From the NCBI RefSeq assembly GCF_900637635.1, contig NZ_LR134383.1, positions 1,384,501 through 1,448,500 on the forward strand: 64,000 nucleotides of DNA, read 5' to 3'. Made by a program: the position numbers and the translations under genes. The notes beneath the pieces were generated by a model that was given only the letters and a program-made list of their open reading frames with translations, did not search any database and was not told the DNA's origin. This DNA comes from Legionella jordanis. GTDB taxonomy: Bacteria > Pseudomonadota > Gammaproteobacteria > Legionellales > Legionellaceae. How positions within the stretch are numbered: position 1 is the first letter of the stretch; each line of letters begins with the position of its first letter. Of the stretch, positions 15,594 through 63,974 are shown one piece after another.

Positions 15594-17462
15594 ATGGTGA
15601 GTAAGCAGCAAACCATGGGTTTTCAAACTGAAGTTAAGCAAATGCTACATCTCGTGGTGCATTCACTTTATTCTAATAAAGAAATATTTCTGCGAGAGTT
15701 GATTTCAAACGCTTCCGATGCCTTGGATAAATTGCGCTTCTTAGCTTTATCTGATTCTTCTTTATATGAGGGAGATTCAAATCTACAAATTACTGTCGAT
15801 TTTAATGAAAAAAATAAAACCATCAGCATTAAAGATAATGGAATCGGCATGAGTTGGGATGAAGCTGTTGAGAATCTGGGAACCATAGCGAAATCCGGAA
15901 CTAAAGAATTTTTGAGTCATTTGACTGGGGAGAAATCAAAGGATGCTCATTTAATTGGGCAATTTGGCGTTGGTTTCTACTCAGCTTTTATTGTTGCCGA
16001 CCGAGTTACTGTTAAAAGCCGTAAGGCAGGGTTAAGCGCCGATGACGGTATTGTATGGCAATCCAATGGAGAAGGTGAATTTACGATAGGTCAGGAGAAG
16101 AGAGCTGAGCGTGGCACCGAAGTAATTTTGCATTTGAAAAGTGATGAGGACGAATTTCTAAGTGACTGGAGACTTCGAAGCATCATCACCAAGTATTCCG
16201 ATCACATTTGCTGGCCTATTGTGATGAAGAAAAGAAATGAAGAAGATAAGCCTGAAGAGGGTTATGAAACCGTCAATAAAGCCACAGCCTTGTGGACCAT
16301 GCAAAAATCTGAAATAAGTGACGAAGATTACAAAGCGCTTTACAAACACATATCCCATGATTTCCAGGAGCCACTCATCTGGTCCCATAATCACGTTGAA
16401 GGAAAACAAGACTACATCAGTTTGCTGTTTATCCCATCGCATGCGCCCTTTGATTTGTGGCAACAAGATATGAAGCACGGTTTAAAGCTCTATGTTAAAC
16501 GTGTTTTTATTATGGATGATGCCTCACAATTTTTGCCGCGATATTTGCGTTTTATTAAAGGAATCATTGATGCCAGTGATTTACCTTTGAACGTTTCTCG
16601 TGAAATTTTACAAGAGAATAAGCAAGTAGAAGCAATCAAGTCAGCTTCTACCAAACGTGTACTTTCCATGCTTGAAAAATTAAGCCAGCAAGATCCTGAA
16701 AAATATCAAAGCTTTTGGAATGAGTTTGGTTTGGTGCTTAAAGAAGGGCCCATCGAGGATTATGCCAATCGTGAAGTCATTGCTAAATTATTGCGCTTTA
16801 CAACGACAAAGAACAATTCAGAAAAGCAAAATGTATCACTGATGGATTATGTTTCTCGCATGAAAGAGGGACAAGATAAAATTTATTATCTGACCGCCTC
16901 AAGCTATAACGCTGCCAAAAATAGCCCTCATCTTGAAATTTTTAAGAAGAAAGACATTGAGGTCTTACTATTAACTGATCGTGTCGATGAATGGCTTGTC
17001 AACTATTTAAGCGAATTTGAAGGCAAGCAGTTACAGTCCATCAGCAAAGGCAAAGTGGATCTCGAAACTGAAGACACTTCAGACATTAAAAAACAGGAAG
17101 AAGCCTTAGCTCCTATGCTTAAGCATATTAAAGAAGTGTTAGGGGATAAGGTTAAAGAGGTACAGCTTACTAATCGTTTAACCAATTCTCCGGCTTGTAT
17201 TGTCGCCGATGAAAATGATATGGGATTGGAAATGCAACGAATTCTTCAAGCTGCAGGTCAAAAAGTTCCTGAGATAAAACCAATATTTGAGATTAATCCA
17301 GAGCATGCATTAATCCAGCGCTTGCACACAGTTCAAGACGATAGCCTTTTTTCAGAATGGGTGTTTATGCTTTTCGAACAAGCTGTCTTGGCCGAGGGAG
17401 GACAATTGGACAATCCAGCCGATTTTGTTAGCCGTGTTAATCGATTGCTGTTGGAAGCCTAG
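15594..17462 (+). CDS. htpG: Chaperone HtpG (Hsp90)
   Basis: A 622-residue Hsp90. The GHKL ATPase motifs are all present: [29 protein letters not shown] and [11 protein letters not shown]. The middle and C-terminal dimerisation domains are full length. It is a cytosolic ATP-dependent chaperone for late-folding clients. Start ATG 15594 ([18 protein letters not shown]) follows a GGAG site. It has its own sigma-32 promoter and a hairpin after the stop. Confidence 0.97.
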
Positions 17463-21438: not shown

Positions 21439-22557
21439 CTAGAGCATACTGTTGAACAAAATCCGGTGCGAGCTGATGGACATTAAAATCCCAAAGCTCG
21501 TCAAAAAGGTAACCATTGCAGTACCACCATAACTGACCAAGGGTAAAGGAATCCCCACAACAGGTAAAATTCCCATGACCATACCAATGTTTACAAAAGC
21601 CGAGAGAAAAAACGTCATGGCCAAACTCGCAGCTAACAGTCGAGTAAAGCTTGTTTGAGCATTTCTTGCAATGTGAAGACCACGCAGTGAAATGAGGATG
21701 ATGACTATCAAAAGTATCGTACTGCCAACAAAACCAAATTCTTCACCACTTACTGCAAATATAAAATCCGTTGCATGTTCGGGTAGAAAGTTAAGATGCG
21801 ATTGACTGCCTGCAAGCCAGCCTTTGCCAAAAGCGCCACCAGAACCAATGGCAATTTTTGATTGAATGATGTGATAACCAGAACCTAGTGGATCTTGTTC
21901 CGGATTTAACAGGGTGAATATTCTTTGTTTTTGATAATCATGCATGAAATGCCAGAGCAACGGGGCTGCAGCGCCTATCATGACAGCCAGTATGGCAAGG
22001 ATGCGCATGCTGATTCCAGCCAAAAACACCACGCTCAATCCTGCGGAAACAACCATGATAGCAGTTCCTAAATCAGGTTGTTTGGCGATGAGCAGGGCTG
22101 GAAAAAATATAATTAGCCCCGCTACGATTAACGACTTCAGATTAACGGGTAGCGATTGTCTATCAAAATACCAAGCCGTCATCATTGGTATTGCCAGTTT
22201 CATAATCTCCGAGGGTTGAAAACGGAATAAACCCAAATCAAGCCAGCGCTGTGCACCTTTACCAATTTTACCAATCAACATGACAGCGATTAGTAAACTT
22301 AAACCAAATCCATAAATCCAAGGCGTCCACACTTTATATTTGTGAGGAGGTATCATTGCAAAAATCATCATAATGACGAGCGCAAAAGTCAGGCGCATGG
22401 ATTGGCGAAGCAGCATGCTCATATTTTGATTCGATGCACTGTATAAAATCAGCATGCCAAAGACTATGAGCCCCAGTAATAGACCAAATAAAGGTAGATC
22501 AATGTGAATTGATTTTGTGGTAAATCGATAAACCGGACGAACGTGATGGCTTTTCAT
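21439..22557 (-). CDS. rodA: Rod-shape-determining SEDS protein RodA
   Basis: A 372-residue polytopic SEDS glycosyltransferase with about ten membrane helices. Visible blocks include FQPSEIMKLAIPM, AKQPDLGTAIMV, GSGGAFGKGWLAGSQSHLNFLPEHATDFIFAV and GIPLPLVSYGGTAM. It polymerises lipid II for lateral wall growth with PBP2. Its start overlaps the mrdA stop by 4 bases. Confidence 0.96.
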   Translation of the reverse strand: MKSHHVRPVYRFTTKSIHIDLPLFGLLLGLIVFGMLILYSASNQNMSMLLRQSMRLTFALVIMMIFAMIPPHKYKVWTPWIYGFGLSLLIAVMLIGKIGKGAQRWLDLGLFRFQPSEIMKLAIPMMTAWYFDRQSLPVNLKSLIVAGLIIFFPALLIAKQPDLGTAIMVVSAGLSVVFLAGISMRILAILAVMIGAAAPLLWHFMHDYQKQRIFTLLNPEQDPLGSGYHIIQSKIAIGSGGAFGKGWLAGSQSHLNFLPEHATDFIFAVSGEEFGFVGSTILLIVIILISLRGLHIARNAQTSFTRLLAASLAMTFFLSAFVNIGMVMGILPVVGIPLPLVSYGGTAMVTFLTSFGILMSISSHRILFNSML

Positions 22558-24407
22558 GATTTGGCTTCGCTTTTTTTCAATTCAAAATAAGCATCCAGAA
22601 CTTTACGGGCGACATTGGATGCAGCAAAATCATTTTCAACGACAACGGCAATTGCAATTTCAGGATTTTCGACGGGTGCAAAGGCAATGAATAAAGAATT
22701 ATCCCTTAAATATTCAGGTATATCTTCATATTTGGTTTTTTCATATTGATGTCCGCCAAACACTTGTGCCGTTCCGGTTTTGGCGGCCACCGAATAAGGT
22801 GGATTCCGTCCAAAACGATAGCCTGTCCCTTCTTCACTGGTAATGACTGAATGCATACCTTCAGCGACGATATCCCAATAGCTATCATCTTTAAGCCGCA
22901 TTGGGTATTCCTCCAAAACTGGATAAGGGTGAGTCTCACCCTTATCGCTTTGAACGGATTTTTGCAATAGGTGAGGGCGAAAACGTCTGCCTTTTTGGCT
23001 TAGGGAAGCCGTTGCGTTCGCCAATTGAATCGGAGAAGCCAACATAAAACCCTGGCCTATGGAGGTAATAACTGTATCGCCAGGATACCAGGATACGCCT
23101 TTGGTTTGCTGTTTCCAATGCTTATTTGGAACAAGTCCTGCGGCTTCTTCCGATAAATCCACGTGCGTTAACTGCCCAAAGCCAAATTGGACCAGCATGT
23201 CCTCAATGGCTGAAATGCCCATCTTGTGACCTAATTGATAAAAATAGGTATCGCAAGACACAGTAATTGCTCTTTTTAGATTGATAACGCCATGGCCTGT
23301 TTTTTTCCAATCGCGATAAGCGTGACTTACTCCAGGCAAACGGAACCAACCGGGATCATAGATGCTATAACGTGCATCAATCACTCCTTTCTCCAGGCCT
23401 GCCAAACCCATAAAAGGTTTTAGGGTAGAGGCTGGGGGATACAATCCCCTCACGGCACGATTATAAAGAGGTCTTTCACGAGCACTCGCAAGTTGTTGGT
23501 ATTCGGCAGCGGTTATGCCATTAACAAAGATATTTGGATTGAAACTTGGGGAGCTCACCATGGCCAATATGTCACCATTTGTTGTGTTCATGGCTACTAC
23601 GGCGCCTCTTTTGTTGAGCAGAGCCTCATAGGCTGCTTTTTGCAGACGAGAATCAATAGTGAGATAAAGTTTTTCACCTGATACCGGATTTTTTTTACTC
23701 AAAACTCGAACTGTTCTGCCACTTACATCGGTCTCTACCTGTTGGTAACCGACTTCCCCATGCAAAATGGTTTCATAATATTTTTCAATACCCGATTTTC
23801 CAATAAAATTGGTTGCTCTGTAATTTGTGGGATCAACCTCTCTCAGCTCTTGCACATTAATGCGACCCACATAACCGAGAATATGGGCCATTATTTCGCC
23901 TAAGGGGTAATATCGCATTAGCCTTGCCTTGATGCTAACTCCTGGGAACTGATATTGATTGCTGGCGAAAATGGCTACTTCTTCCTGATTAAGTTTTAAC
24001 TTAAGTGGAATAGGCACAAAAGAGCGGTTTTGCTTTCGAATTCGATTAAAGTTTTCAAGGTCCTCATTGGTAATGGAAGGTAATAATTTTTGCAGCCTTT
24101 CCAAGGTTTGCCCCATGTTTTTAATCCGTTCCGGAATGATTTCAAGAACATAAACAGGAATGTTTTCGGCCAGAACGACGCCATTTCTATCTAAAATTAT
24201 TCCCCTGGGTGGTGCGATGGGGATAATACTCATCTGATTTTTTAAAGATAAAGTATGGTATCTTTTAAATTGGGAAATTTGTAAATGAGCCAAACGAAAA
24301 ATTAAAATTAGCGATAAGCTAAAAACTAATAATACAAGAAAATTGAGACGAAAGCGTTGTATACGCGAATCCAAGCGGTCTGTCCTGATCGATTTGTTTA
24401 AACGCAT
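22554..24407 (-). CDS. mrdA: Penicillin-binding protein 2 (elongasome transpeptidase)
   Basis: A 617-residue class B PBP. It has one N-terminal membrane helix (LNFLVLLVFSLSLILIFRL), a dimerisation domain and the transpeptidase motifs. These are SxxK as YPPASTLK (Ser near 325), SCDT in the SxN position, and KTGTAQVFG near 540. It crosslinks peptidoglycan for rod elongation with RodA. It sits upstream of rodA in the order rsfS-rlmH-mrdA-rodA, common in gammaproteobacteria. Confidence 0.96.
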   Translation of the reverse strand: MRLNKSIRTDRLDSRIQRFRLNFLVLLVFSLSLILIFRLAHLQISQFKRYHTLSLKNQMSIIPIAPPRGIILDRNGVVLAENIPVYVLEIIPERIKNMGQTLERLQKLLPSITNEDLENFNRIRKQNRSFVPIPLKLKLNQEEVAIFASNQYQFPGVSIKARLMRYYPLGEIMAHILGYVGRINVQELREVDPTNYRATNFIGKSGIEKYYETILHGEVGYQQVETDVSGRTVRVLSKKNPVSGEKLYLTIDSRLQKAAYEALLNKRGAVVAMNTTNGDILAMVSSPSFNPNIFVNGITAAEYQQLASARERPLYNRAVRGLYPPASTLKPFMGLAGLEKGVIDARYSIYDPGWFRLPGVSHAYRDWKKTGHGVINLKRAITVSCDTYFYQLGHKMGISAIEDMLVQFGFGQLTHVDLSEEAAGLVPNKHWKQQTKGVSWYPGDTVITSIGQGFMLASPIQLANATASLSQKGRRFRPHLLQKSVQSDKGETHPYPVLEEYPMRLKDDSYWDIVAEGMHSVITSEEGTGYRFGRNPPYSVAAKTGTAQVFGGHQYEKTKYEDIPEYLRDNSLFIAFAPVENPEIAIAVVVENDFAASNVARKVLDAYFELKKSEAKS

Positions 24408-25433: not shown

Positions 25434-26072
25434 ATGCAAATAAGGAATGCTGTTCTATATCTGGTACTTTTTCTTTTCACCAAAGCAAGCCTGGGTCTGG
25501 ATTTAACCAAGTTGATAAAAGTTAATAATGAAAACAACCCTAATTGCATCAGCTATTATCAATACAAAGGCAGTTTGTATTGCAGTACATCTTCTTCCCA
25601 ACCGCATAAACCCAATCCGAACATTCTTGATTATGAGCGACAACAGATTGTGTTTGACAACCGAGCCTGGGTGGCGGCCTGGGCAAAAAATACAGGACAG
25701 ATGATAACCGTTGAGTACGTCCCGGAGGGGCAAAATATTAATGATTGGCAAGAGCTTATAACGAGTCAGTTTGCAGAAGGTTTGCAAAAAAAGGTGAGTC
25801 CTTTGCAATTTTGCGAAACGATTGTTTTAGCATTGGAGCAATCCGGCTTTAAACCGAAAATAACTTTTTTTGAGAAGACAAATGATCGGATAATTTTTGA
25901 ATTTCAAATACATGCCCCAGAACATTTTCAGCAGGATGAGTTGCAAATGATAACCAGAGGGCAAAAAGGAATTTATATCTTGCATTATGTAATAAAACAA
26001 ACAGACATGGGAGAAGCCAATCGCAAATTATGGTTAAGCAATTTCAAGGCCACAACACCTAAAGAAATTTAA
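25434..26072 (+). CDS. Secreted hypothetical protein
   Basis: A 212-residue protein with a signal peptide (AVLYLVLFLFTKASLG, cut before LDLTK) and an AAAGGACA ribosome site. The mature part has two early cysteines (NCISYY and LYCSTS) that could form a disulfide. It continues with a mixed alpha/beta region (WQELITSQFAEGL, TFFEKTNDRIIFEFQIH) and a basic C-terminal WLSNFKAT. The central fold somewhat resembles small periplasmic stress proteins, but no family was recognised. It is divergent from rsfS and convergent with the OMP gene. Confidence 0.7.
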   Translation: MQIRNAVLYLVLFLFTKASLGLDLTKLIKVNNENNPNCISYYQYKGSLYCSTSSSQPHKPNPNILDYERQQIVFDNRAWVAAWAKNTGQMITVEYVPEGQNINDWQELITSQFAEGLQKKVSPLQFCETIVLALEQSGFKPKITFFEKTNDRIIFEFQIHAPEHFQQDELQMITRGQKGIYILHYVIKQTDMGEANRKLWLSNFKATTPKEI

Positions 26073-26095: not shown

Positions 26096-26749
26096 TTAAA
26101 AAAAGTAGGCAAGCCTGGCTGTTACTGCATAAAGAAAAGGAAAGTAGGTATTTGAAGGATTCAATTGCGACTCACCATAACCAGCACTGTAAGTTCCAGC
26201 AAGTTCAGCCATAAAATGCTCTTTGAATCGATAATTTAAACCCGCAGCAAAGGTGGGGGATAAACGCCAGTCATCTACTAAAATATCCTCTCGATGAACA
26301 CCCGCTGCACCGGCACTGGAAAAAAGGCGAAGAGAGCTGTTGTTGATTGGCAACATGATTTTTGCCATAAGACTTAACGTTTCTGTCTTAGTTTTAAAAG
26401 AAACCAAATTATCGTTTTCAAAGCTGAATAAGCTCATGGGATCAAACGAAATCTCGGCATCAGGATAGCGCATGTAATTAAACTCTACTGCGAAAGCTGA
26501 CAGGAATTCATAACCTGCCATGACTCCCCATACGCCACCCCCCTCCGTTACATCAATGGGCGTGGACATGCTAAGGGCCAAGTTTTGGTTTTCTTCAGTG
26601 GGTACTAGACCTTGCCAGGTTGTAGAACCATAACCACCCATTACACCTATATAAAGGGGATGATGGAAAAGCGGTGGTCCAGCTTCCCCTGCATAACCAA
26701 ATGTAGAAGAGGTTGTTAATAATGTGGTAAACAAAATTTTTTTAATCAC
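26096..26749 (-). CDS. Outer-membrane beta-barrel protein
   Basis: A 217-residue protein with a signal peptide (ILFTTLLTTSSTFGYAGEAG). Alternating strands contain IGVMGGYGSTTW, AVEFNYMRY and FAAGLNYRFKEHFMAEL. The C terminus ARLAYFF ends in an aromatic residue, the barrel-insertion signal. It resembles small eight-stranded porin-like proteins. It is the last of four same-strand genes after the MMPL-NRPS pair, with a 56-base gap to the Cys-rich gene. The function is unknown. Confidence 0.8.
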   Translation of the reverse strand: MIKKILFTTLLTTSSTFGYAGEAGPPLFHHPLYIGVMGGYGSTTWQGLVPTEENQNLALSMSTPIDVTEGGGVWGVMAGYEFLSAFAVEFNYMRYPDAEISFDPMSLFSFENDNLVSFKTKTETLSLMAKIMLPINNSSLRLFSSAGAAGVHREDILVDDWRLSPTFAAGLNYRFKEHFMAELAGTYSAGYGESQLNPSNTYFPFLYAVTARLAYFF

Positions 26750-26805
26750 AATAACTCTCTTAGTCTTAATTTCTTTGAGAGAAATTAAGAAACAGCTGAA
26801 AATAA

Positions 26806-27150
26806 TTATTGGCAGGCCTTATAAGTTGAATTACAAATTCTTCCCCGAGAATCAACGCCACCGCGAAGATAGCAATTCCAATTGTCAATGCAGTCTTGGG
26901 TGCTGGTGTATTTTTGATACTCACATGCTTTTTGGAGTGAGCCAAATACACTGATCATTCGTGAATAAAGGGAGTTCATATCCTGACACATCCCGGATGG
27001 CAAGCCGGAAGATACACAATAGCAAGTTGCAGCCGTTTTAAATGATGGGCAAAAATTGACATCATCAGTAGGTTTGGCGTTAGGGCAGCTGGCAGCAGCA
27101 AAGTGTGTAAAAAAAAGGGCAAATATTGTGAGACAGATTTTTTTTCTCAT
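26806..27150 (-). CDS. Small secreted cysteine-rich protein
   Basis: A 114-residue protein with a signal peptide (ICLTIFALFFTHFAAA, cut before SCPNA). The roughly 94-residue mature chain has ten cysteines, an even number that could make five disulfides, including the CYC pair. Such density suggests an exported, disulfide-locked peptide. The ribosome site is AAGGATCAAGG. It starts 52 bases after the NRPS stop on the same strand. No family was recognised; a toxin, inhibitor or adhesive role would be speculation. Confidence 0.75.
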   Translation of the reverse strand: MRKKICLTIFALFFTHFAAASCPNAKPTDDVNFCPSFKTAATCYCVSSGLPSGMCQDMNSLYSRMISVFGSLQKACEYQKYTSTQDCIDNWNCYLRGGVDSRGRICNSTYKACQ

Positions 27151-27202
27151 CCTTGATCCTTGTTATTTAATGAATTCATTCAAAACTTTACCAGAATTAA
27201 TC

Positions 27203-30200
27203 CTAAGACAAAATAGTGAAACTGTCCTTTTGTGGAGTTTGCTCTAAAGTTTCACAATTCATTATCCTTATCATTTCTTTAATAATTGACTCTCGGAAAT
27301 CTGAAGTCAAGTTAGCTGAAATTGCAATATAGGGTTTGTTTTCAGTGCTTTTTAAAAAGCAAACATCGAAAACATTATCAATGTTCAATAAATCAAATTG
27401 ATAGAGTCTTGGTTGCTTTGCTTTAAAACCAAACCAATATTTTTCAGCAGAGTCTTGAGTCCAAAAACTGCTGTGTACATTCACATTAATAAGAAATTCA
27501 TTATTTCGAACGTTGTTTAGGCGACTGCAACATTTGATGATTTGTCGATGCAGCTTAAGTGATCGGAAGCTGCCGTAAATCCAGGAAAGAATCTTTATTC
27601 CGAACTCAATCATTATTTTCCTTCGCTTGCGAAAAGTGCCTACACTCGCGAGTTTAATTAAATTCGGACATGCTTGATGCAAACTTGTGGTTTGAGTGGA
27701 GTGATGTGCTTGCTGGCATACACTGATTAAAGTAGATTGTTCATGCACCGCCAGGCGTAAAAGAGCAAGATTAAGAAAACATCCGATAGTCTCGTCGTAT
27801 TTTGGATCAATCCGTGTGGATCGGATTTTGTTGAGGACAATGGCAGAATTGTCCTTAAAGCTGAATTTACAACAATTTCTTAATGCCAAAGCTAGAATTC
27901 CTATTAGGCCATCATCAAGGCTCAGATGATTTCGTGAGCAAAATGTTCGCAGATGACCTAAAGCATCTTTGGGAATTTCGCAATAAGTGGAATAGGGCAG
28001 CTTTGCCTGTTTCATATGGTCAACAATGTGTTCTGAAGGGAATTGGACTAAATAAGCGTCTTGCAAATAATTTTCCCAAAAATCCAAATCCTGGTTTATT
28101 TGTTTTTCCACCAGGTCTTTTTCAGCCAGTATATAATGCCTGTAAGCTGTATCAGGAAGTGGCGGTGATGTTGGAGAAGATAAATAAAAATCTGATAACT
28201 CGGAAAATATAATTGATGGTGACACATCATCAGAGATAATGTGAGGGAGGGCAATCTGTAATTCACTTAAATTGTCCTCAAGACGAAATAACTGAACTTT
28301 AAGGAGGGGATGATTTTTAGGCCAAGGGTAGAAGCGGATTAAAGCATCAAATGAATGCTCCAAGGTGGCCTCGTGTTCTGTTTCAGGCAGATGTCGAAGA
28401 TCAATTTCATCTATCTTAAAAGTGAGCTCTTTTCGCGTGTATTGGGCAGGAATCCAGGAATAGATTCCAAAAGACAGCACTTCGTGTTTGTCTAACAATC
28501 GCTTCAAGGCTAAATTAAGCTTCTGCACATCAATAGCACCTGCAAAGCGCCTGCGAGCACAAATATTTAATTTTCTGGCTTTCGGTTTAAAGGTATTGGT
28601 TAGCCAGAGTAAAAGTTGGAAATCTCCAAGTGGAAGTAAGTCGGATTCATTATGGGGATCGGGAGGTAAGAATGGCTCTGATTTTTTTACACTTTTTAAT
28701 AGATGGCTTAAAGCAGCTATGGTTGGAAATTCATAAAATTGTTGCAGGGTAATCTCCTTTTTCAGGGAGTGGTTGATGGTAGAAATAATTCTTGCAGCTA
28801 ATAAAGAATGACCACCGAGGTCGAAAAAATCATCATGTATTCCAACAGATTCAATGCCTAATTCACTAGCCCAAATTTTTGCCAATTGTTCTTCCAGATG
28901 ATTCCGGGGAGCAATGTAATTTTCCCCGCTTGAAATGGGGGGAACGATTAAAGCGAATCGATCTAATTTTTCATTGGCATTTAGCGGAAAGTGCTGCATT
29001 TCGACAAAATTGCCTGGAATCATATAATCGGGTAGGTACTGTTTCAAATAGTCTTTTAATTCTCTTTCGTTTAAGGATAATGTTTCATCATTAGGTATAT
29101 AATAGGCAATTAGTCTCTTATCTGAATGGAGGCCATCAACGGCTATTACTACAGCCGCTTTAATTAAAGGGTGGGCCGCAAGCCTTTCTTCGACTTCGGC
29201 GGGTTCAACTCGAAACCCTCTTATTTTAATCTGATGATCAATTCGCCCAACGCATTCAATTTCTCCCTTCATTAAACGGCGACATAAATCACCCGTTTTA
29301 TAAAGGCGGGCATTGGGTTCTTGATTGAAAGGATTTTTAATAAAGGATTTCGCAGTCAATTCCGGACTGTTTAAATAACCGCGAGCTAAACATTCCCCAG
29401 TCAGAAACAGTTCACCAATATTCCCATCAGCTACCGGGTTTAACTCTTCGTCCAAAATGTATGCTTGGCTATTAGGAACTAATTCGCCAATAGGTACGTT
29501 TGAGCCCAGGCTCTGTATGTTGTTGCAATCCACTTTAAACAGGCATACAGCCACACTCGTCTCAGTTGGGCCGTACTCATTGTACAAAATATGCACTGGG
29601 TAGAGATTGAGCCAAGCTTGGCAATCGCTTTTTGCCAGGTTTTCACCGGCAAGCATAATTTTTTTCAACTGCTTAAGCGACATCTGATGGTTCTTTGCTT
29701 CATGCACAAGCACTCTAAAATAACTGGGTGTTAACTTGATAAAATTGACGCGGCTCGATTGTAAAAATTTAAGGTACTGACGCGGATCTTTTTTGATATT
29801 ATCTTCACAAATAACCACTGTAAGACCCAATACAAGTGGAATAATGGAAGTCGTCAGAGCAAAGTCAAATGCTGGATTGGATGAAAAATCAATCCGCTCT
29901 TTCGTATGCAAATCGCAATAGTTTGCAAACCACTGCGCGTAATTAATTACACCTCCATGTTCAACCATTACGCCTTTGGGTTTACCTGTCGAACCAGAGG
30001 TATATATGATATAGGCTAGATTTTTAGCGGAAGTGAGGTTATGTGGATTGTCTTTGGACTTCTCAGCCCAGACAGATGGGTTTTCAATGTTGATTAATTT
30101 GCCATTGTAACGATGAAGTTTTTTTTCCCATTTAGAATTGGTAATCAGAATGGTAGTATTTGCTTCATTTAAAATCATTAACAAACGTTCTTCTGGAAAT

Positions 30201-30460
30201 GAAGGATCAAGAGGAATGTAGGCCCCACCCGCTTTGAGAATGGCAAGAATGGCAACGAAAAACTCTATTGAGCGTTCCATACATAGGGCAATAGGCTGAT
30301 CAACAGTCACTGAATGCTCTTGCAAATAGTGAGCAAGTTGATTGGCTTTCTGGTTTAGTCCTTGATAGCTAATTTTTTGATCAGCAAACGAAACCGCAGT
30401 TTGTCGAGAATTTTGCTCAACCTGCAATTCAAACAATTCGTGTAAGGTATTTCCGCTCAA
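27203..30460 (-). CDS. Non-ribosomal peptide synthetase, single module A-T-C
   Basis: A 1085-residue NRPS starting at TTG with an ideal AAAGGAG site. The adenylation domain (about 1-505) has YIIYTSGSTGKPKG, NEYGPTE, YKTGDL, GRIDHQIKIRGFRVEP and the A10 lysine (Lys498). The carrier domain (about 515-590) has FFDLGGHSLL, with the phosphopantetheine Ser552. A condensation domain (about 608-1060) has DKHEVL, a degenerate PHIISDD in place of HHxxxDG (His740 and Asp744 kept), and IGCFLNLALLRL. There is no thioesterase. Specificity residues read D-F-T-K-M-A-E-V-A-K, nearest the known asparagine code. The module likely joins one amino acid to a free acceptor. An MMPL exporter precedes it. Confidence 0.92.
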   Translation of the reverse strand: MSGNTLHELFELQVEQNSRQTAVSFADQKISYQGLNQKANQLAHYLQEHSVTVDQPIALCMERSIEFFVAILAILKAGGAYIPLDPSFPEERLLMILNEANTTILITNSKWEKKLHRYNGKLINIENPSVWAEKSKDNPHNLTSAKNLAYIIYTSGSTGKPKGVMVEHGGVINYAQWFANYCDLHTKERIDFSSNPAFDFALTTSIIPLVLGLTVVICEDNIKKDPRQYLKFLQSSRVNFIKLTPSYFRVLVHEAKNHQMSLKQLKKIMLAGENLAKSDCQAWLNLYPVHILYNEYGPTETSVAVCLFKVDCNNIQSLGSNVPIGELVPNSQAYILDEELNPVADGNIGELFLTGECLARGYLNSPELTAKSFIKNPFNQEPNARLYKTGDLCRRLMKGEIECVGRIDHQIKIRGFRVEPAEVEERLAAHPLIKAAVVIAVDGLHSDKRLIAYYIPNDETLSLNERELKDYLKQYLPDYMIPGNFVEMQHFPLNANEKLDRFALIVPPISSGENYIAPRNHLEEQLAKIWASELGIESVGIHDDFFDLGGHSLLAARIISTINHSLKKEITLQQFYEFPTIAALSHLLKSVKKSEPFLPPDPHNESDLLPLGDFQLLLWLTNTFKPKARKLNICARRRFAGAIDVQKLNLALKRLLDKHEVLSFGIYSWIPAQYTRKELTFKIDEIDLRHLPETEHEATLEHSFDALIRFYPWPKNHPLLKVQLFRLEDNLSELQIALPHIISDDVSPSIIFSELSDFYLSSPTSPPLPDTAYRHYILAEKDLVEKQINQDLDFWENYLQDAYLVQFPSEHIVDHMKQAKLPYSTYCEIPKDALGHLRTFCSRNHLSLDDGLIGILALALRNCCKFSFKDNSAIVLNKIRSTRIDPKYDETIGCFLNLALLRLAVHEQSTLISVCQQAHHSTQTTSLHQACPNLIKLASVGTFRKRRKIMIEFGIKILSWIYGSFRSLKLHRQIIKCCSRLNNVRNNEFLINVNVHSSFWTQDSAEKYWFGFKAKQPRLYQFDLLNIDNVFDVCFLKSTENKPYIAISANLTSDFRESIIKEMIRIMNCETLEQTPQKDSFTILS

Positions 30461-30493
30461 TTGATCACTCCTTTGATCCAGGCCTTATTTTTA

Positions 30494-32713
30494 TTATAGT
30501 TTGGGTAAAATTTTATCCATCCATCTTGGAAGATACCAATTTAGACTTTGAAGTATTGCCATAGTAGAAGGCACCAGCAATGTCCTTATTAAAAAAGCAT
30601 CTACGAAAATAGCTACTGCAATTCCTAGGCCAAAAGCTTTAACCATTAATACATCTGCCACAAGAAAAGAACCGCAAATCACTATGACGATTAAGGCTGC
30701 ACTGGTAATAATTCGACTGCTCCGCTCAATCCCAAAGACAATAGCCTTGTTCGTATCCTGAGTGGTTTCATGAGCTTCTTTGATTCGTGATAAGAGGAAA
30801 ACTTCATAATCCATTGAAAAACCAAATAATGCGCAGAAAATAATAACCAACAGGCTAATATCAAGGGATCCTTGGGGTTCAAAATGCAGATAGTGTGATA
30901 AATATCCTTCCTGGAATACCAAAACCAATGCGCCATAGCAGGCAGAAAGGCTAATTAGGTTCATAAGGATGGCTTTGACCGGCAAGAAAAGAGAGCGTAG
31001 TAACAATAGCAATATAAGATAAGTAAAAACCATGATCCAGATTAGGGCGAGTGGTAGACTCTCTGATATTCGTTTTAGGACGTCGTAATTGCTAACGGGC
31101 GTGCCTGCGTATGATAATTTGAGGCCGGGCATGTTCAGATTGCGTAAGCTTTCCACCAAGTCTGAATTTTTTTCAGACTCAGGTGCGTATTTGCTGATGA
31201 CAGTCATTACTGTAAAAGAATGGCCCGTGGTGGTATCCAGTAAAATTTTCACTGCGCCACTTAACATTTTTTTGGGTGCGGAATAGAGCTTATAGTATTG
31301 ATTTTTATTTAAATCTGCATCTGAAGAGACAATGCCGCGAATTTGATCCACGCCGGGATATTTTTTTAATTGTTGTACCAGGTCGTATAACCTGGAGAGA
31401 TTTTTTCGCGACAGTACATCTCCCTTTGTTTGCACCAAAATCTGAATGGCTGATAACTCTTTAATGTTAAAACTCTGGGAATAGCTATTAAAAAAGGCTC
31501 GGCTTTCGGAATCTTTCGGCAAGATTTTATAATCGGAAACGCCAAATTTTGCAGATAAAAAAGGATAACCCAAAGCTAATAATAAAATTAGGATGGGGAA
31601 AAGAAACAATAATGGGTGCCCCACTACCTTTTCCGCTAACCAATGCCATACACGAGAGTGTCGAACTTCATGTTTTCGCGAAAAATGAATGGAAAATAAA
31701 TTTATCCGTGATTTTAAAACGGCTAAAATCGCTGGCAATACAATCACAGCCGTGAAAACAGCCACTAATACGGCAGACATTCCTCCCATAGCCATTGAGA
31801 ACAAGATATTTATGGGAAACAAAAACAGGGCGCTTAAACTTACAAGAACCGCTAAGCCGCTAAAAAAGATGGCTTTACCTGCGGTTTCAACAGTTACGGC
31901 TATCGCTTCTCTTACGCTTAAACCATTCTCCAACTCTTCACGGAAGCGGTTAATGATGAATAATGAGTAGTCGAGGCTTAAGCAGAGCCCTAAAAGCAGT
32001 GCAATATTTAATGTATAAATTGAGAGTGTCCACACCTGACCTAAAAAATACAGCGAGCAAAGAATAATCAAAGCGCATCCGCCGCCAAGAAAGACAGGCA
32101 GGAAAGCGGCTATTAAGGAACCAAAAACAAAAAGCATGGTGATGATAGCCACTGGGGTGGCAAAAAAATCTGCACGGTAAAGATCAACCTGAGTTTGCTT
32201 ATTGACTGCTTTCATAAACAATGGTTGCCCACCCATTTCAACCGTCATATTGGTTGGTTTTCTAATGCTGTTGGTGAATTGATCCAATAATTGAGAATTT
32301 AAACTTATAGGACTTTTAACAATCACAACCGCGTAAGCTGTATGCTTGTCTTTGGAGATTTGCTTCTTGTTTTCAGATGGAAAAATAATTTTATTTTCAA
32401 TTGGAAAATTTTTTAATGGAGATAAAGACCATTTGATTTTTTTAATGAAAAGAGGATTGCTGGCTTTAAGAGTGTCGCTATGGAACATGATGATAAATTT
32501 ATTTTCATTATTGTAATTTAAATTGTGGTTGATTAATTCCTGAGTCTTGGCGCTTTCGGAATGCTCATCAATAAAGCCGGTTGATTTAAAGGGCGAAATG
32601 ATATGGGGCAGAAAAGGTAAGCAGGCTAAAAGCATTAAAAGCCATAAACTTATTAGATACCAGCGAAGCGGGTAAATGAGATTTCCAAACTTATAAAATA
32701 AGTGTTTTTCCAT
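30494..32713 (-). CDS. MMPL/RND-family exporter
   Basis: About 739 residues with the MMPL layout. It has an N-terminal helix, a periplasmic loop, a block of helices, and a second identical half. The paired motif LSLDYSLFIINRFREELENG recurs as FGFSMDYEVFLLSRIKEAHETT, with the conserved Asp-Tyr proton-relay pair. These proteins export lipids, siderophores or lipopeptides. ATG 32713 is chosen; a TTG six codons earlier is possible. The NRPS starts 33 bases downstream, so this is the probable exporter of its product. Confidence 0.9.
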   Translation of the reverse strand: MEKHLFYKFGNLIYPLRWYLISLWLLMLLACLPFLPHIISPFKSTGFIDEHSESAKTQELINHNLNYNNENKFIIMFHSDTLKASNPLFIKKIKWSLSPLKNFPIENKIIFPSENKKQISKDKHTAYAVVIVKSPISLNSQLLDQFTNSIRKPTNMTVEMGGQPLFMKAVNKQTQVDLYRADFFATPVAIITMLFVFGSLIAAFLPVFLGGGCALIILCSLYFLGQVWTLSIYTLNIALLLGLCLSLDYSLFIINRFREELENGLSVREAIAVTVETAGKAIFFSGLAVLVSLSALFLFPINILFSMAMGGMSAVLVAVFTAVIVLPAILAVLKSRINLFSIHFSRKHEVRHSRVWHWLAEKVVGHPLLFLFPILILLLALGYPFLSAKFGVSDYKILPKDSESRAFFNSYSQSFNIKELSAIQILVQTKGDVLSRKNLSRLYDLVQQLKKYPGVDQIRGIVSSDADLNKNQYYKLYSAPKKMLSGAVKILLDTTTGHSFTVMTVISKYAPESEKNSDLVESLRNLNMPGLKLSYAGTPVSNYDVLKRISESLPLALIWIMVFTYLILLLLLRSLFLPVKAILMNLISLSACYGALVLVFQEGYLSHYLHFEPQGSLDISLLVIIFCALFGFSMDYEVFLLSRIKEAHETTQDTNKAIVFGIERSSRIITSAALIVIVICGSFLVADVLMVKAFGLGIAVAIFVDAFLIRTLLVPSTMAILQSLNWYLPRWMDKILPKL

Positions 32714-33057
32714 GTTCCGCCATCCCCTCAAAAATGAAGGGTAATGGTAAGCACATGATTAAATGTTAGGCATAAATAACAATTTTTGCAGCTTTTTAGT
32801 TGAAAATACTAAAAAAATTCCTGAAGAAAGAAATAGAGGATGAATAAAACCTCTTCACGGGTTAGCAACCCCTTGGATTATTTGAATCAGTTTTTCAAGA
32901 AAAAAATCAGTTTTTTAGGCTGAAAAACAGGAGGTGGCGACCTCTTGGCAGTGGTTACAGGAGCAAAATACAGTATAAAAAAATTTCATTCGGATTATTG
33001 TGAAGTGAATACTGGCTCGTTTACAATCAGCTCGAAATTACCTCCCAAGTGACAAAC
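32714..33057. other. Divergent control region of the MMPL-NRPS genes and a small secreted gene
   Basis: About 340 AT-rich bases without a gene. A 7-bp stem (AGGAGGT/ACCTCTT, one wobble pair) lies at 32929-32946. No regulator consensus was recognised and no promoter could be fixed. It must carry the control signals for the MMPL-NRPS run. Confidence 0.5.
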
Positions 33058-33369
33058 ATGAAAACAATTCGCTGTTTCTCTCGGCTTCTACTTTGTGGAA
33101 TTATGTTGAGCATTAGCTTTGCTTGCCAAGCGGGTTGGGGCCATAACCATTACCATGGCCATGGTTCTTATGGATATGGCCCTGGGGGGTATTATGGATG
33201 GGGTTTATATCCTGGTTGGAGTGGGCCTAATGTCATTATTAACATACCGGCACCTGCTCCTGTTTATGTTCCACCCCGCGTTTACATTCCTCCACAATAT
33301 GTTCCACAATGTGAACCGGTTGAGGTCTGTAATCCGGATGAATGTTGGTTACAACAGGAATGTCGCTAA
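33058..33369 (+). CDS. Small secreted Gly/Tyr/Pro-rich protein
   Basis: A 103-residue protein with a signal peptide (LLLCGIMLSISFACQAG). It continues with a Gly-His-Tyr-rich stretch (HNHYHGHGSYGYGPGG), a hydrophobic strand NVIINIPAPAPVYVPP, and a Cys-rich tail with four cysteines (CEPVEVCNPDECWLQQEC). The Pro/Tyr repeats suggest an extended surface or wall-linked protein. ATG 33058 is chosen over the in-frame GTG 33049; neither has a strong ribosome site. The function is unknown. Confidence 0.7.
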   Translation: MKTIRCFSRLLLCGIMLSISFACQAGWGHNHYHGHGSYGYGPGGYYGWGLYPGWSGPNVIINIPAPAPVYVPPRVYIPPQYVPQCEPVEVCNPDECWLQQECR

Positions 33370-61697: not shown

Positions 61698-62693
61698 TCA
61701 TTTGGGTTTTGCTCGCCATAGTGAGTTTACAAAATAGTTTTGTGAATCACTGAAATTGTTTACCACTTCAAAGTAACTTGTTTGTGCTAAATGTTCGATT
61801 TGAAACAGAGTGTATTTGTATGAAGATTCCACATGTATGGGTTCAAATCGGTCAAAGAAAAAGGTTTTATTTAATGACCCAATATGAACCGTTTGTTCTG
61901 CCCGACTGACAATAAAGCTTTCCATAGCTCCATCAAGCACGTTGTAATTGCCGTAATGTTCGAAAGATTTTAAATTAAAATCCGCGTTTAGTTCTCGATT
62001 CACTCGCTCAAGGAGATTTAAATTAAAGGCACGGGTTATACCATCACGATCATTGTAGGCGCGAAGAAGAACGTCAATATCTTTTCGTAGATCAAAACCA
62101 ATGAGCATGTAATCTCCTTCTTGCAAGGATTGACGTATTTCTTGTAAAAAACACCTCGATGTTGAAAGATCGAAATTGCCTATACTTGAACCTAAAAATA
62201 AAACGAAGTTCTTTTCTTTGGAGGTTTCACCTAAGCATTTAATGCCATTAGAATAGTCGGAATTGATTGAAATAATGTTTAAATCAGGTAATTCCCCGTT
62301 TATTTTTTGTGCTAACTGTTCCAGGTACTGCGTGGAAATATCAATCATGCAGTAGCTGAAAGAACGCCGGTCTTTAATAAATTGATCAATCAACAACCTG
62401 GATTTAATACCCTCCCCAGGCCCTAATTCGATCAAATTAAAAGTGGTCTTTCCTAGTAATGCGGATAACTCTTTTCTAATGGTTGTAAGAATATCAATCT
62501 CACAAGCAGTTAAATAGTAATCTGGATGTTTTGTGATTCGATTAAACAGTTCGGAACCGGTCTCATCATAAAAGTATTTCGACGGAATGGTCTTTTTAGA
62601 TCGAGAAAGTCCTAATAAAACATCTCTCATAAATTCATTGTTAGCCTGATTGTGGGACTGATGATTCTGTATAGCTTTTAATAAGGCAGCCAT
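61698..62693 (-). CDS. egtD: L-histidine N-alpha-methyltransferase EgtD
   Basis: A 331-residue SAM-dependent methyltransferase. YFYDETGSELFNRITKHPDYYLT, the SAM motif IELGPGEGIKSRLL and the late IHVESSYKYT block mark EgtD. It trimethylates histidine to hercynine, the first step to ergothioneine. AGGAG precedes ATG 62693, which is 9 bases after the egtB stop, so they form one operon. Confidence 0.93.
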   Translation of the reverse strand: MAALLKAIQNHQSHNQANNEFMRDVLLGLSRSKKTIPSKYFYDETGSELFNRITKHPDYYLTACEIDILTTIRKELSALLGKTTFNLIELGPGEGIKSRLLIDQFIKDRRSFSYCMIDISTQYLEQLAQKINGELPDLNIISINSDYSNGIKCLGETSKEKNFVLFLGSSIGNFDLSTSRCFLQEIRQSLQEGDYMLIGFDLRKDIDVLLRAYNDRDGITRAFNLNLLERVNRELNADFNLKSFEHYGNYNVLDGAMESFIVSRAEQTVHIGSLNKTFFFDRFEPIHVESSYKYTLFQIEHLAQTSYFEVVNNFSDSQNYFVNSLWRAKPK

Positions 62694-62702
62694 GCTGAGC
62701 TC

Positions 62703-63974
62703 CTATAGACTAGTTGCTAAACGAATTCCGCTAAATTGCCAGCGTTTTTCTGGCTGAAAAAAATTGCGATAGCTTAACCGGATGTGTTGTTTGGGAGTCA
62801 CACAGCAACCTCCACGTAAGACATATTGATTATTCATGAACTTGCCATTGTATTCTCCTAGACTACCCTCCAACATTTTATAGCCGGGATAAGGTGAGTA
62901 GGGACTTGCGGTCCACTCCCACAAATCACCTAAAAACTGTTGCGGTAAATCTGGCTGTTCTGATTTAGGGTCTTGTGGGTGATAGTGTCCGCTTTCCATA
63001 AAATTAGCCTGTTCTAAAGGAAACGCGGCCTGACTTACATAGTGTTCCCATTCTGCTTCAGTAGGAAGACGATAACCGCGCCATCTTGCGTAGGCATCTG
63101 CCTCAAAATAACTGATGTGGGATACAGGCTCGGCTGGATTTAATGCCTGCAAACCATTTAGTGTAAAAAGATGCCATTTACCTCCCATATCATGCCAATA
63201 CAAAGGAGAAGAAATCTGGTTGGCCAAAACCCAATCCCAGCCGTCTGATAACCACCATCTGGAGTTACTATAGCCTCCGTCTTCCATGAACTCTTGGTAT
63301 TCAGCATTACTAACCAATAAAGAAGAGATTGCATAGGGATAAAGAAAAATTTTATGTCTTGGCAATTCATTATCAAAACAGAAGCCTTGTTCTGAATAAC
63401 CAATTTCAGTTAGTCCTCCCGTGATTTCCAGGTTGGGGATAGATTGAGGTTTGACTGTTTTCAATGAGCTTGTTGCCGGGATTTTATTGTAAGCTGGAAA
63501 ATCTGGATCCAGAGACAGATTGAATTTTATATCCATAAATAATAGTTCTTGGTGTTGCTGTTCGTGCTGCAAGCCCAGGACAATTAAATCCTTTAGTTGG
63601 TTTAATTCATCTTCGGTTTTTCCATCGAGTAATTCCAGCAAATGCTCGTTGATATAATGACGATAGGCGTAGACGATTTCCGCGGTGGGTCTTGACAGCA
63701 ATCCTCTCTGGGAGCGTGTAAAAGGTTTACCTATTGTTTGGTAATAGGAGTTGAAGCGATAAGCAAATGAGCCATCAAATAAACGGTAAGAGGGGGAATA
63801 AGGTTGTAAAATAAAAGTCTCAAAGAACCAACTGCTGTGAGCTAAATGCCATTTGGGTGGACTTACATCAGCCATACCCTGAATGACATAGTCTTCTGCA
63901 TAAAGAGGATGGCAGATTTGTTCTGTCCGTTGCCGTACTTGCTTAAAAGTACGAGCAAGTTCTTCCTTTAGCAT
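62703..63974 (-). CDS. egtB: EgtB-type hercynine sulfoxide synthase
   Basis: A 423-residue iron enzyme. The N-terminal DinB-like domain holds metal ligands in WHLAHSSWFFE (His46) and HEQQHQE (His137, His141). The C-terminal formylglycine-enzyme-like domain has GDLWEWTASPYSPYPGYK, EYNGKFMNNQYVLRGG and the RWQFSGIRLA ending. It joins hercynine to cysteine or glutamylcysteine with oxygen. AAGGGA precedes ATG 63974. No egtA, egtC or egtE is in view. Confidence 0.93.
   Translation of the reverse strand: MLKEELARTFKQVRQRTEQICHPLYAEDYVIQGMADVSPPKWHLAHSSWFFETFILQPYSPSYRLFDGSFAYRFNSYYQTIGKPFTRSQRGLLSRPTAEIVYAYRHYINEHLLELLDGKTEDELNQLKDLIVLGLQHEQQHQELLFMDIKFNLSLDPDFPAYNKIPATSSLKTVKPQSIPNLEITGGLTEIGYSEQGFCFDNELPRHKIFLYPYAISSLLVSNAEYQEFMEDGGYSNSRWWLSDGWDWVLANQISSPLYWHDMGGKWHLFTLNGLQALNPAEPVSHISYFEADAYARWRGYRLPTEAEWEHYVSQAAFPLEQANFMESGHYHPQDPKSEQPDLPQQFLGDLWEWTASPYSPYPGYKMLEGSLGEYNGKFMNNQYVLRGGCCVTPKQHIRLSYRNFFQPEKRWQFSGIRLATSL

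What the first reader, a model, noticed from the sequence alone, without database searches (positions are those of the whole stretch)
26096..32713. MMPL-NRPS-Cys-rich-OMP cluster: a possible undescribed small-metabolite system
Four minus-strand genes run with gaps of 33, 52 and 56 bases: MMPL exporter, one-module NRPS (A-T-C), a 10-cysteine secreted peptide, and a beta-barrel outer-membrane protein. An exporter directly before a lone NRPS module without thioesterase suggests a small aminoacyl conjugate made in the cytoplasm and sent out. The peptide and OMP may be part of the same function, or only nearby. Housekeeping genes (rsfS, hut) bound the region, so it looks like an inserted accessory locus.
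Basis: partly seen in the sequence, partly recalled or inferred. Interest (0 to 1): 0.75.

Follow-up and report, generated by a model that had tools for sequence, protein, structure and literature searches.

The report
Legionella envelope lipid transport gene module
Four neighbouring genes in a Legionella relative belong to an old, jointly inherited set found across the Legionella family that probably moves a lipid, perhaps a sterol taken from the host, across the cell envelope.

Summary
In detail: MMPL (30494..32713), A-T-C NRPS (27203..30460), a 114-aa ten-cysteine secreted protein (26806..27150) and an OmpA-like barrel (26096..26749) lie head-to-tail with gaps of 33, 52 and 56 bases. The linkage is real and old. 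Across 143 Legionellaceae genomes Cys-rich protein and OMP are both present in 105 and both absent in 34; Cys-rich protein and MMPL in 103 and 33. In 104 loci examined, 101 keep OMP directly behind the Cys-rich gene, while order and setting around them change; a flanking gene does not co-travel. MMPL + Cys-rich + OMP is therefore the core. The NRPS is an optional partner, but its main type was found only with the Cys-rich gene (61 of 107 against 0 of 36). An unexpected partner is an ERG4/ERG24 sterol reductase: strong hits in 61 of 107 against 0 of 36, beside the core in 10 genomes. Best reading: a Legionellaceae trans-envelope lipid module, probably for sterol-type lipids, with an MmpL3-like pump and an NRPS predicted to load Asn (Gly in one genus). 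Cargo, direction and NRPS product are inferred, not shown.

The parts
30494..32713 (-). MmpL3-like MMPL/RND inner-membrane transporter, 739 aa
   Evidence: Pfam MMPL 219 bits; best solved relative MmpL3, E 9e-74; both Asp-Tyr pairs (248-249 and 635-636 of the 739-aa form; 254-255 and 641-642 of the 745-aa ORF used) are identical in 92 of 92 proteins over 700 aa, window included
27203..30460 (-). One-module NRPS A-T-C, 1085 aa, TTG start; predicted Asn-loading (code DFTKMAEVAK); no thioesterase
   Evidence: Pfam domains; specificity residues and motifs in 44 linked full-length proteins, window included; C-domain motif PHIISDD; its type was found only in genomes with the Cys-rich gene
26806..27150 (-). 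Secreted 114-aa protein with ten conserved Cys, predicted all-helical; proposed periplasmic carrier (inferred)
26096..26749 (-). Outer-membrane beta-barrel of OmpA/OmpW-like fold (8 strands in the model), 217 aa, GTG start
   Evidence: PF13505 and PF01389; model and PDB Foldseek matches: OmpA E 3e-11, OmpW 4e-7 and 7e-7; directly behind the Cys-rich gene in 101 of 104 loci

Best explanation
The locus is one copy of a Legionellaceae trans-envelope lipid module. Shown by sequence: an MmpL3-like pump, a ten-cysteine secreted helical protein and an OmpA/OmpW-like barrel are inherited and lost together, stay linked in changing contexts, and are often joined by an A-T-C NRPS and/or an ERG4/ERG24 sterol reductase whose main types, in this survey, occur only where the Cys-rich gene occurs. 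Inferred: the pump uses its two Asp-Tyr pairs for proton-coupled movement of a lipid; the Cys-rich protein carries it through the periplasm; the barrel passes it into or through the outer membrane. The lipid is most likely sterol-like and host-derived, because no squalene or oxidosqualene cyclase was found in 22 genomes of the window's genus. The NRPS loads Asn (Gly in one genus) on its T domain, and the terminal C domain transfers it to an acceptor handled by the same system, releasing it without a thioesterase. Direction is undecided; export is the default for MMPL proteins (recalled).
For: Co-occurrence in 143 genomes: Cys-rich/OMP 105 both, 34 neither; Cys-rich/MMPL 103 both, 33 neither; strong reductase hits in 61 of 107 genomes with the Cys-rich gene and 0 of 36 without (56 of 87 and 0 of 30 among the 117 better genomes); NRPS type I 61 of 107 and 0 of 36 (51 of 87 and 0 of 30); control flank gene 37 of 107 and 17 of 36, p 0.23. 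Within-genus shuffles over the six mixed genera: reductase and NRPS type I seen 0 times in negative genomes, expected 6.1 and 7.9, p about 1e-4 and 5e-5. Linkage: OMP directly behind the Cys-rich gene in 101 of 104 loci; MMPL within 6 kb in 76, upstream same strand in 45, downstream same strand in 7, convergent in 24 (orders). The reductase lies directly beside a core gene in 10 genomes of three genera and one gene away in an eleventh, in at least three layouts; it is PF01222, 221 bits, and matches solved Delta14-sterol reductase 4quv, E 2e-59. MmpL3 similarity and invariant Asp-Tyr pairs. OMP fold. NRPS codes. No cyclase in 22 genomes. Module-free G052 is sister to G064, which has the module, in a 13-sequence tree.
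Against: 46 of 107 Cys-rich-positive genomes have no strong reductase hit, and in the window's own genome it lies some 1.5 Mb away among unrelated genes. One negative genome, G112, has a PF01222 hit just over the cut-off (27.1 against 27 bits; C-terminal part, 243-aa ORF), which I did not count. In 22 of 107 no A-T-C NRPS was counted, so its product cannot be the only cargo. The pump resembles the glycolipid exporter MmpL3; the sterol-transporter model BstA scores 24 bits against a cut-off of 1400. The Cys-rich model matched none of 47 PDB chains, so 'carrier' rests on position only. The reductase is not the only recurring neighbour: a Fis-family gene is beside the core in 8 genomes, with an Hsp90 gene near in 6 (a shared chromosomal setting of deep genera, I think), and varied short-chain dehydrogenases in 5; these were not searched family-wide. 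Genomes are related, so Fisher values overstate significance; only one flank gene served as control. Unlinked A-T-C NRPSs neighbour TauD-type dioxygenases in 7 genomes, which fits a separate small-molecule role. Exceptions: G003 and G036 have Cys-rich + OMP without MMPL, G026 and G035 lack OMP; G052 keeps an A-T-C NRPS of another type without the core.
Confidence: 0.4

Rival explanations
1. NRPS product exporter: the NRPS makes an Asn (or Gly) conjugate in the cytoplasm, and MMPL with peptide and OMP exports it as a small metabolite or lipopeptide; no sterol is involved.
For: NRPS directly before the Cys-rich gene on the same strand in 44 of 104 loci, all four within 6 kb in 43; NRPS type I counted only in Cys-rich-positive genomes; codes conserved across species. 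The siderophore exporters MmpL4 and MmpL5 are weaker relatives of the pump.
Against: 33 loci have MMPL near without an NRPS near; the single-contig genome G130 keeps MMPL, Cys-rich and OMP in tandem with no A-T-C NRPS found (five candidates scored); it does not explain the sterol-reductase association.
Confidence: 0.25
2. MmpL3-like exporter of a Legionellaceae envelope lipid that is not a sterol, with Cys-rich chaperone and OMP acceptor; NRPS and reductase are separately acquired modifiers of that lipid or only share its ecology.
For: MmpL3 is the closest solved relative by a wide margin (E 9e-74 against 4e-25 for MmpL4); the Cys-rich gene is in 25 genera, NRPS type I in 13 and the reductase in 10.
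Against: Does not by itself explain why strong reductase hits are missing from all 36 genomes lacking the Cys-rich gene and recur beside the core.
Confidence: 0.26
3. The genes are neighbours by shared ancestry only; co-occurrence reflects phylogeny, without common function.
For: Genomes are related; local synteny explains many shared neighbours in genus g26 and a Fis/Hsp90 setting in deep genera.
Against: Gene order, strand and setting change while the core stays together; within-genus shuffles give p about 5e-5 for OMP and MMPL, observed 2 against about 12 and 11 expected; the adjacent 212-aa gene does not co-travel.
Confidence: 0.04

Closest known systems
BstA/BstB/BstC sterol transporters of Methylococcus capsulatus (PMC10942540; abstract, section 5 and found passages read)
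   Same: MMPL/RND-family inner-membrane protein plus periplasmic and outer-membrane-side partners beside sterol genes; also found by phylogenetic profile and neighbourhood
   Different: BstB is a phosphonate-type binding protein and BstC a TatT-type protein; here a ten-Cys helical protein and a beta-barrel; the BstA model scores 24 of 1400 bits; no cyclase found in the genus
MmpL3, trehalose monomycolate exporter of mycobacteria
   Same: Closest solved relative; both Asp-Tyr pairs align
   Different: Gram-negative host, different partner genes, no long C-terminal extension; mycolates are not expected in Legionella (recalled)
'Cluster F' NRPS of Legionella (Tobias et al. 2016, PMC5126622; sections 13, 17, 20 and found passages read)
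   Same: Single A-T-C module, called the most prevalent cluster in a study of 15 Legionella species, not confined to a clade
   Different: No product given in the sections read and MMPL does not occur in the text; the figure with its neighbours is not held, so identity with this locus is likely, not proven
Sterol reductases of amoeba-associated bacteria (L. drancourtii Delta7, PMC2667531, part 1 of 3 read; Coxiella Delta24, as cited in PMC9806796, passages read)
   Same: Intracellular bacteria with sterol-modifying enzymes and host sterol as likely substrate
   Different: The reductase beside the module is closest to the solved Delta14-sterol reductase 4quv, and the passages read describe no linked transporter
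ErdS, fungal ergosteryl-aspartate synthase (PMC9437257, passages read; the fungal Gly enzyme is recalled)
   Same: Attachment of an amino acid to a sterol
   Different: tRNA-dependent AspRS-DUF2156 enzyme; here an NRPS

Membership tests
MMPL/RND transporters (PF03176) | Profile match over gathering cut-off | tested here: met
   219.3 bits against 20.5
MMPL/RND transporters (PF03176) | Asp-Tyr proton-relay pairs of MmpL3 (role recalled) | tested here: met
   Aligned to 7nvh; identical in 92 of 92
BstABC sterol transport system | BstA equivalog model NF045600 | tested here: not met
   24.2 bits against cut-off 1400
BstABC sterol transport system | BstB-like and BstC-like partners (PF12974, PF16811) | tested here: not met
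   No such Pfam match at E 0.01 in the Cys-rich protein or OMP
BstABC sterol transport system | Linkage with sterol genes | tested here: inconclusive
   Reductase beside the core in 10 genomes; no cyclase in 22 genomes of the genus
NRPS module | A, T and C domains with intact T serine motif | tested here: met
   Pfam; GGHSL in 44 of 44 linked full-length proteins
NRPS module | Canonical HHxxxDG of the C domain (motif recalled) | tested here: not met
   First His is Pro in 43 and Ser in 1 of 44; second His and Asp kept in 44
NRPS module | Asn-activating A domain | tested here: inconclusive
   Code D[FM][TS]K..E..K in 37 of 44, close to the recalled Asn code DLTKLGEVGK; 7 of 44 resemble the recalled Gly code DILQLGLIWK; residues mapped by motif, no activity data
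Cluster F NRPS (PMC5126622) | Same locus as the published cluster | not testable with these tools
   Architecture agrees; figure and supplementary tables not held or not open
Known small Cys-rich carriers or peptides | Profile or fold match | tested here: not met
OmpA/OmpW-type barrels | Profile and fold | tested here: met
ERG4/ERG24 sterol reductase (partner gene, not in the window) | PF01222 and match to a solved enzyme | tested here: met
   activity not testable here
Fungal-type steryl-amino-acid synthase | AspRS plus DUF2156 domains | tested here: not met
   Only AMP-binding, PP-binding and Condensation domains in the NRPS

The most novel reading that the evidence does not exclude
A bacterial, non-ribosomal route to aminoacylated host sterols: the A-T-C NRPS esterifies a reductase-processed host sterol with Asn or Gly, and the MMPL-Cys-rich-OMP core places the conjugate in the bacterial outer membrane or the vacuole, a chemical counterpart of the tRNA-dependent steryl amino acids of fungi, with a carrier of unrecognised fold.
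Probability: 0.09. Interest if true: 0.88.

Novelty: new variant of a known kind. Interest (0 to 1): 0.61.

Why it matters
How bacteria acquire, modify and place host sterols is called poorly understood in the BstABC paper (abstract). A compact, jointly inherited pump, secreted protein and barrel with a recurrent sterol reductase gives a concrete candidate, and also a setting for what is likely the most prevalent orphan NRPS of Legionella. The set is missing as a unit in several lineages, so the trait can be compared with lifestyle. The Cys-rich protein is a family-restricted protein without a recognised fold.

Tried and rejected
Rejected or inconclusive: (1) Peptide and OMP as bystanders. (2) The 212-aa convergent neighbour 25434..26072 as a fifth member: 57 of 143 genomes at E 0.001; I dropped three weak or short ones (G019, G056, G058) and used 54, of which 17 are Cys-rich-negative; none of the other places listed adjoins the module. 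(3) Bacteriocin-like peptide: one copy per genome and 40-76% identical apart from one broken-looking hit in G019. (4) An elicitin-, saposin- or plant-LTP-like fold for the Cys-rich protein was my guess; no PDB match supports it. (5) BstABC membership. (6) Squalene-epoxidase search PF08491: 127 of 134 match weakly and the E. coli control rings, so I read it as UbiH-type enzymes and uninformative. (7) Four unlinked reductases have unrelated neighbours. (8) One distant MMPL outside the family, 28% identity, not followed. (9) The claim that the reductase is the only recurring neighbour was checked and dropped; confidence in the main reading was lowered from 0.42 to 0.40 for this and for G112. (10) Literature: searches; the listings (only the top rows for 14, 70 and 124) showed no paper whose title or abstract start describes this module.
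Full report
What is there. The window is from a Legionellaceae genome of 3.13 Mb in one contig. Four minus-strand genes are confirmed at the stated coordinates with gaps of 33, 52 and 56 bases: MMPL, A-T-C NRPS, ten-cysteine secreted protein, OMP.

Family-wide survey. Each protein was searched in the 143 Legionellaceae genomes held. Counting strong hits, the Cys-rich protein is in 107, OMP in 107, MMPL in 106. Cys-rich and OMP agree in 139 of 143, Cys-rich and MMPL in 136 of 143; among the 117 better genomes there are two exceptions each. The 36 Cys-rich-negative genomes include incomplete ones and two of 0.5 Mb; 30 of them are in the better set. Six genera are mixed, and within-genus shuffles give p about 5e-5 for OMP and MMPL. 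In a tree of 13 sequences of a penicillin-binding protein (window 22554..24407; Pfam) the module-free G052 is sister to G064, which has the module, so the locus can be lost as a unit. Fisher values ignore relatedness.

Linkage. I fetched 120 stretches. Of 104 loci with the Cys-rich gene (window included; G038, G039 and G041 were not fetched), 101 have OMP directly behind it on the same strand, 76 have MMPL within 6 kb, 52 an A-T-C NRPS within 6 kb and 43 all four. Layout differs: MMPL-NRPS-Cys-OMP in most of the window's genus and many of g26; Cys-OMP followed by convergent MMPL in deeper genera, in g15 with the NRPS beyond; NRPS-Cys-OMP-MMPL in G009, G011 and G044. Staying together through such rearrangement is the strongest sign of joint function.

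The NRPS. It is optional. In 22 of 107 genomes with the Cys-rich gene I counted no A-T-C NRPS; this may be inflated because one search scored at most five candidates per genome. Type I is in 61 of 107 and 0 of 36; with all types it is 85 of 107 and 1 of 36, the exception being G052. In 44 linked full-length proteins the A-domain residues read D[FM][TS]K..E..K in 37 (Asn-like) and DILQ-GMIWK in 7 from g15 (Gly-like), compared with recalled reference codes. The T motif is intact. The C motif is xPHxxxD: first His lost, second His and Asp kept. The C domain is remote from solved ones (best E 3e-11, EpoB). With no thioesterase, a terminal C domain passing the amino acid to an acceptor is the natural reading (inference). 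Unlinked copies lie beside TauD-type dioxygenases in 7 genomes (Pfam on two of them).

The pump. The closest solved relative is MmpL3, E 9e-74, aligned in both halves; MmpL4 follows at 4e-25. Both Asp-Tyr pairs are identical in 92 of 92 proteins. In 369 sampled genomes of the class, five have a match at E 1e-40, four of them Legionellaceae and one distant at 28% identity.

The unexpected partner. Neighbours around the core in 104 genomes were clustered. A 431-aa protein recurs in 11 genomes of three genera: directly behind OMP (G103, G122, G128, G130, G131), one gene behind it (G129), directly before the Cys-rich gene (G064, G067, G087, G094), or divergent beyond MMPL (G119). It is ERG4/ERG24 (PF01222; tested on one member), nearest the solved Delta14-sterol reductase 4quv. 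A search of all 143 genomes found PF01222 over the cut-off in 62; 61 are strong (E below 1e-30) and all 61 have the Cys-rich gene; the other, G112, lacks it and its hit is marginal. G002, G024 and G032 have only a higher-scoring type, probably the Delta7 kind known from L. drancourtii (inference). The window's genome has a copy elsewhere (G000:C1:3039539). No squalene or oxidosqualene cyclase was found in 22 genomes of the genus, so a sterol would come from the host. Against this, 46 of 107 lack the reductase. Other recurring neighbours: a Fis-family gene (13 genomes, 7 genera, directly beside the core in 8) with an Hsp90 gene (6 genomes), which I take as an ancestral chromosomal setting; varied short-chain dehydrogenases (11 genomes, beside in 5); an ABC ATPase cluster (9 genomes, beside in 1). 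These were not searched family-wide.

Interpretation. A trans-envelope lipid module with sterol-type cargo fits best; a plain NRPS-product exporter and a non-sterol envelope lipid exporter are live rivals. Asn/Gly-type NRPSs and a sterol reductase around one pump permit a bold reading, aminoacylated sterols, for which there is no direct evidence.

Known work. Tobias et al. 2016 describe a single-module A-T-C NRPS, 'Cluster F', as the most prevalent cluster; no product is given in the sections read and MMPL does not occur in the text. Sterol reductases in L. drancourtii and Coxiella are in print, as are BstABC transporters and fungal steryl-aspartate. Ten paper searches listed nothing linking these genes in Legionella; most subscription papers are not held. 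Named hits (41 loci) include no L. pneumophila record, but that scan is not exhaustive and absence there was not tested by name.

Noticed in passing
window 15594..17462 (+); loci around the Cys-rich gene in deep genera: An Hsp90 (HtpG-like) gene lies near the Cys-rich gene in 6 genomes of four deep genera and a Fis-family gene in 13 genomes of seven; the window's Hsp90 gene is about 9 kb from its OMP gene. Possibly the ancestral position.
   Followed up: partly
L228:6398-7651, L234:6274-7263 and five more genomes: TauD-type dioxygenase next to unlinked A-T-C NRPS genes of two types (cluster of 7; Pfam on two).
   Followed up: partly
L232-L241: A second A-T-C NRPS type with T motif GGNSL and C motif SHxxSD in 10 genomes; a peptidase S51-type gene adjoins it in 6 (Pfam on one).
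   Followed up: partly
L090:13349-14194, L071:13588-14376, L077:4802-6314: Short-chain dehydrogenases beside MMPL in 5 genomes; sequences differ, co-occurrence not tested.
   Followed up: no
window 25434..26072 (+): 212-aa secreted protein without a Pfam family, in 57 of 143 genomes at E 0.001, not tied to the module.
   Followed up: yes
window 33049..33369 (+): 106-aa secreted Gly/Tyr/His-rich protein with Cys near its C-terminus, no family match.
   Followed up: no
L065:13318-15969 (+): 883-aa protein with a calpain-type (Peptidase_C2) domain beside MMPL in G122.
   Followed up: no
window 61698..63974 (-): Histidine-specific methyltransferase and FGE-sulfatase/DinB genes in tandem, an EgtD-EgtB-like pair (ergothioneine role recalled).
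   Followed up: partly
L225-L227: Just before the unlinked type I NRPS genes of G055, G060 and G070 lies a short remnant of an MMPL C-terminus, a trace of earlier linkage.
   Followed up: partly
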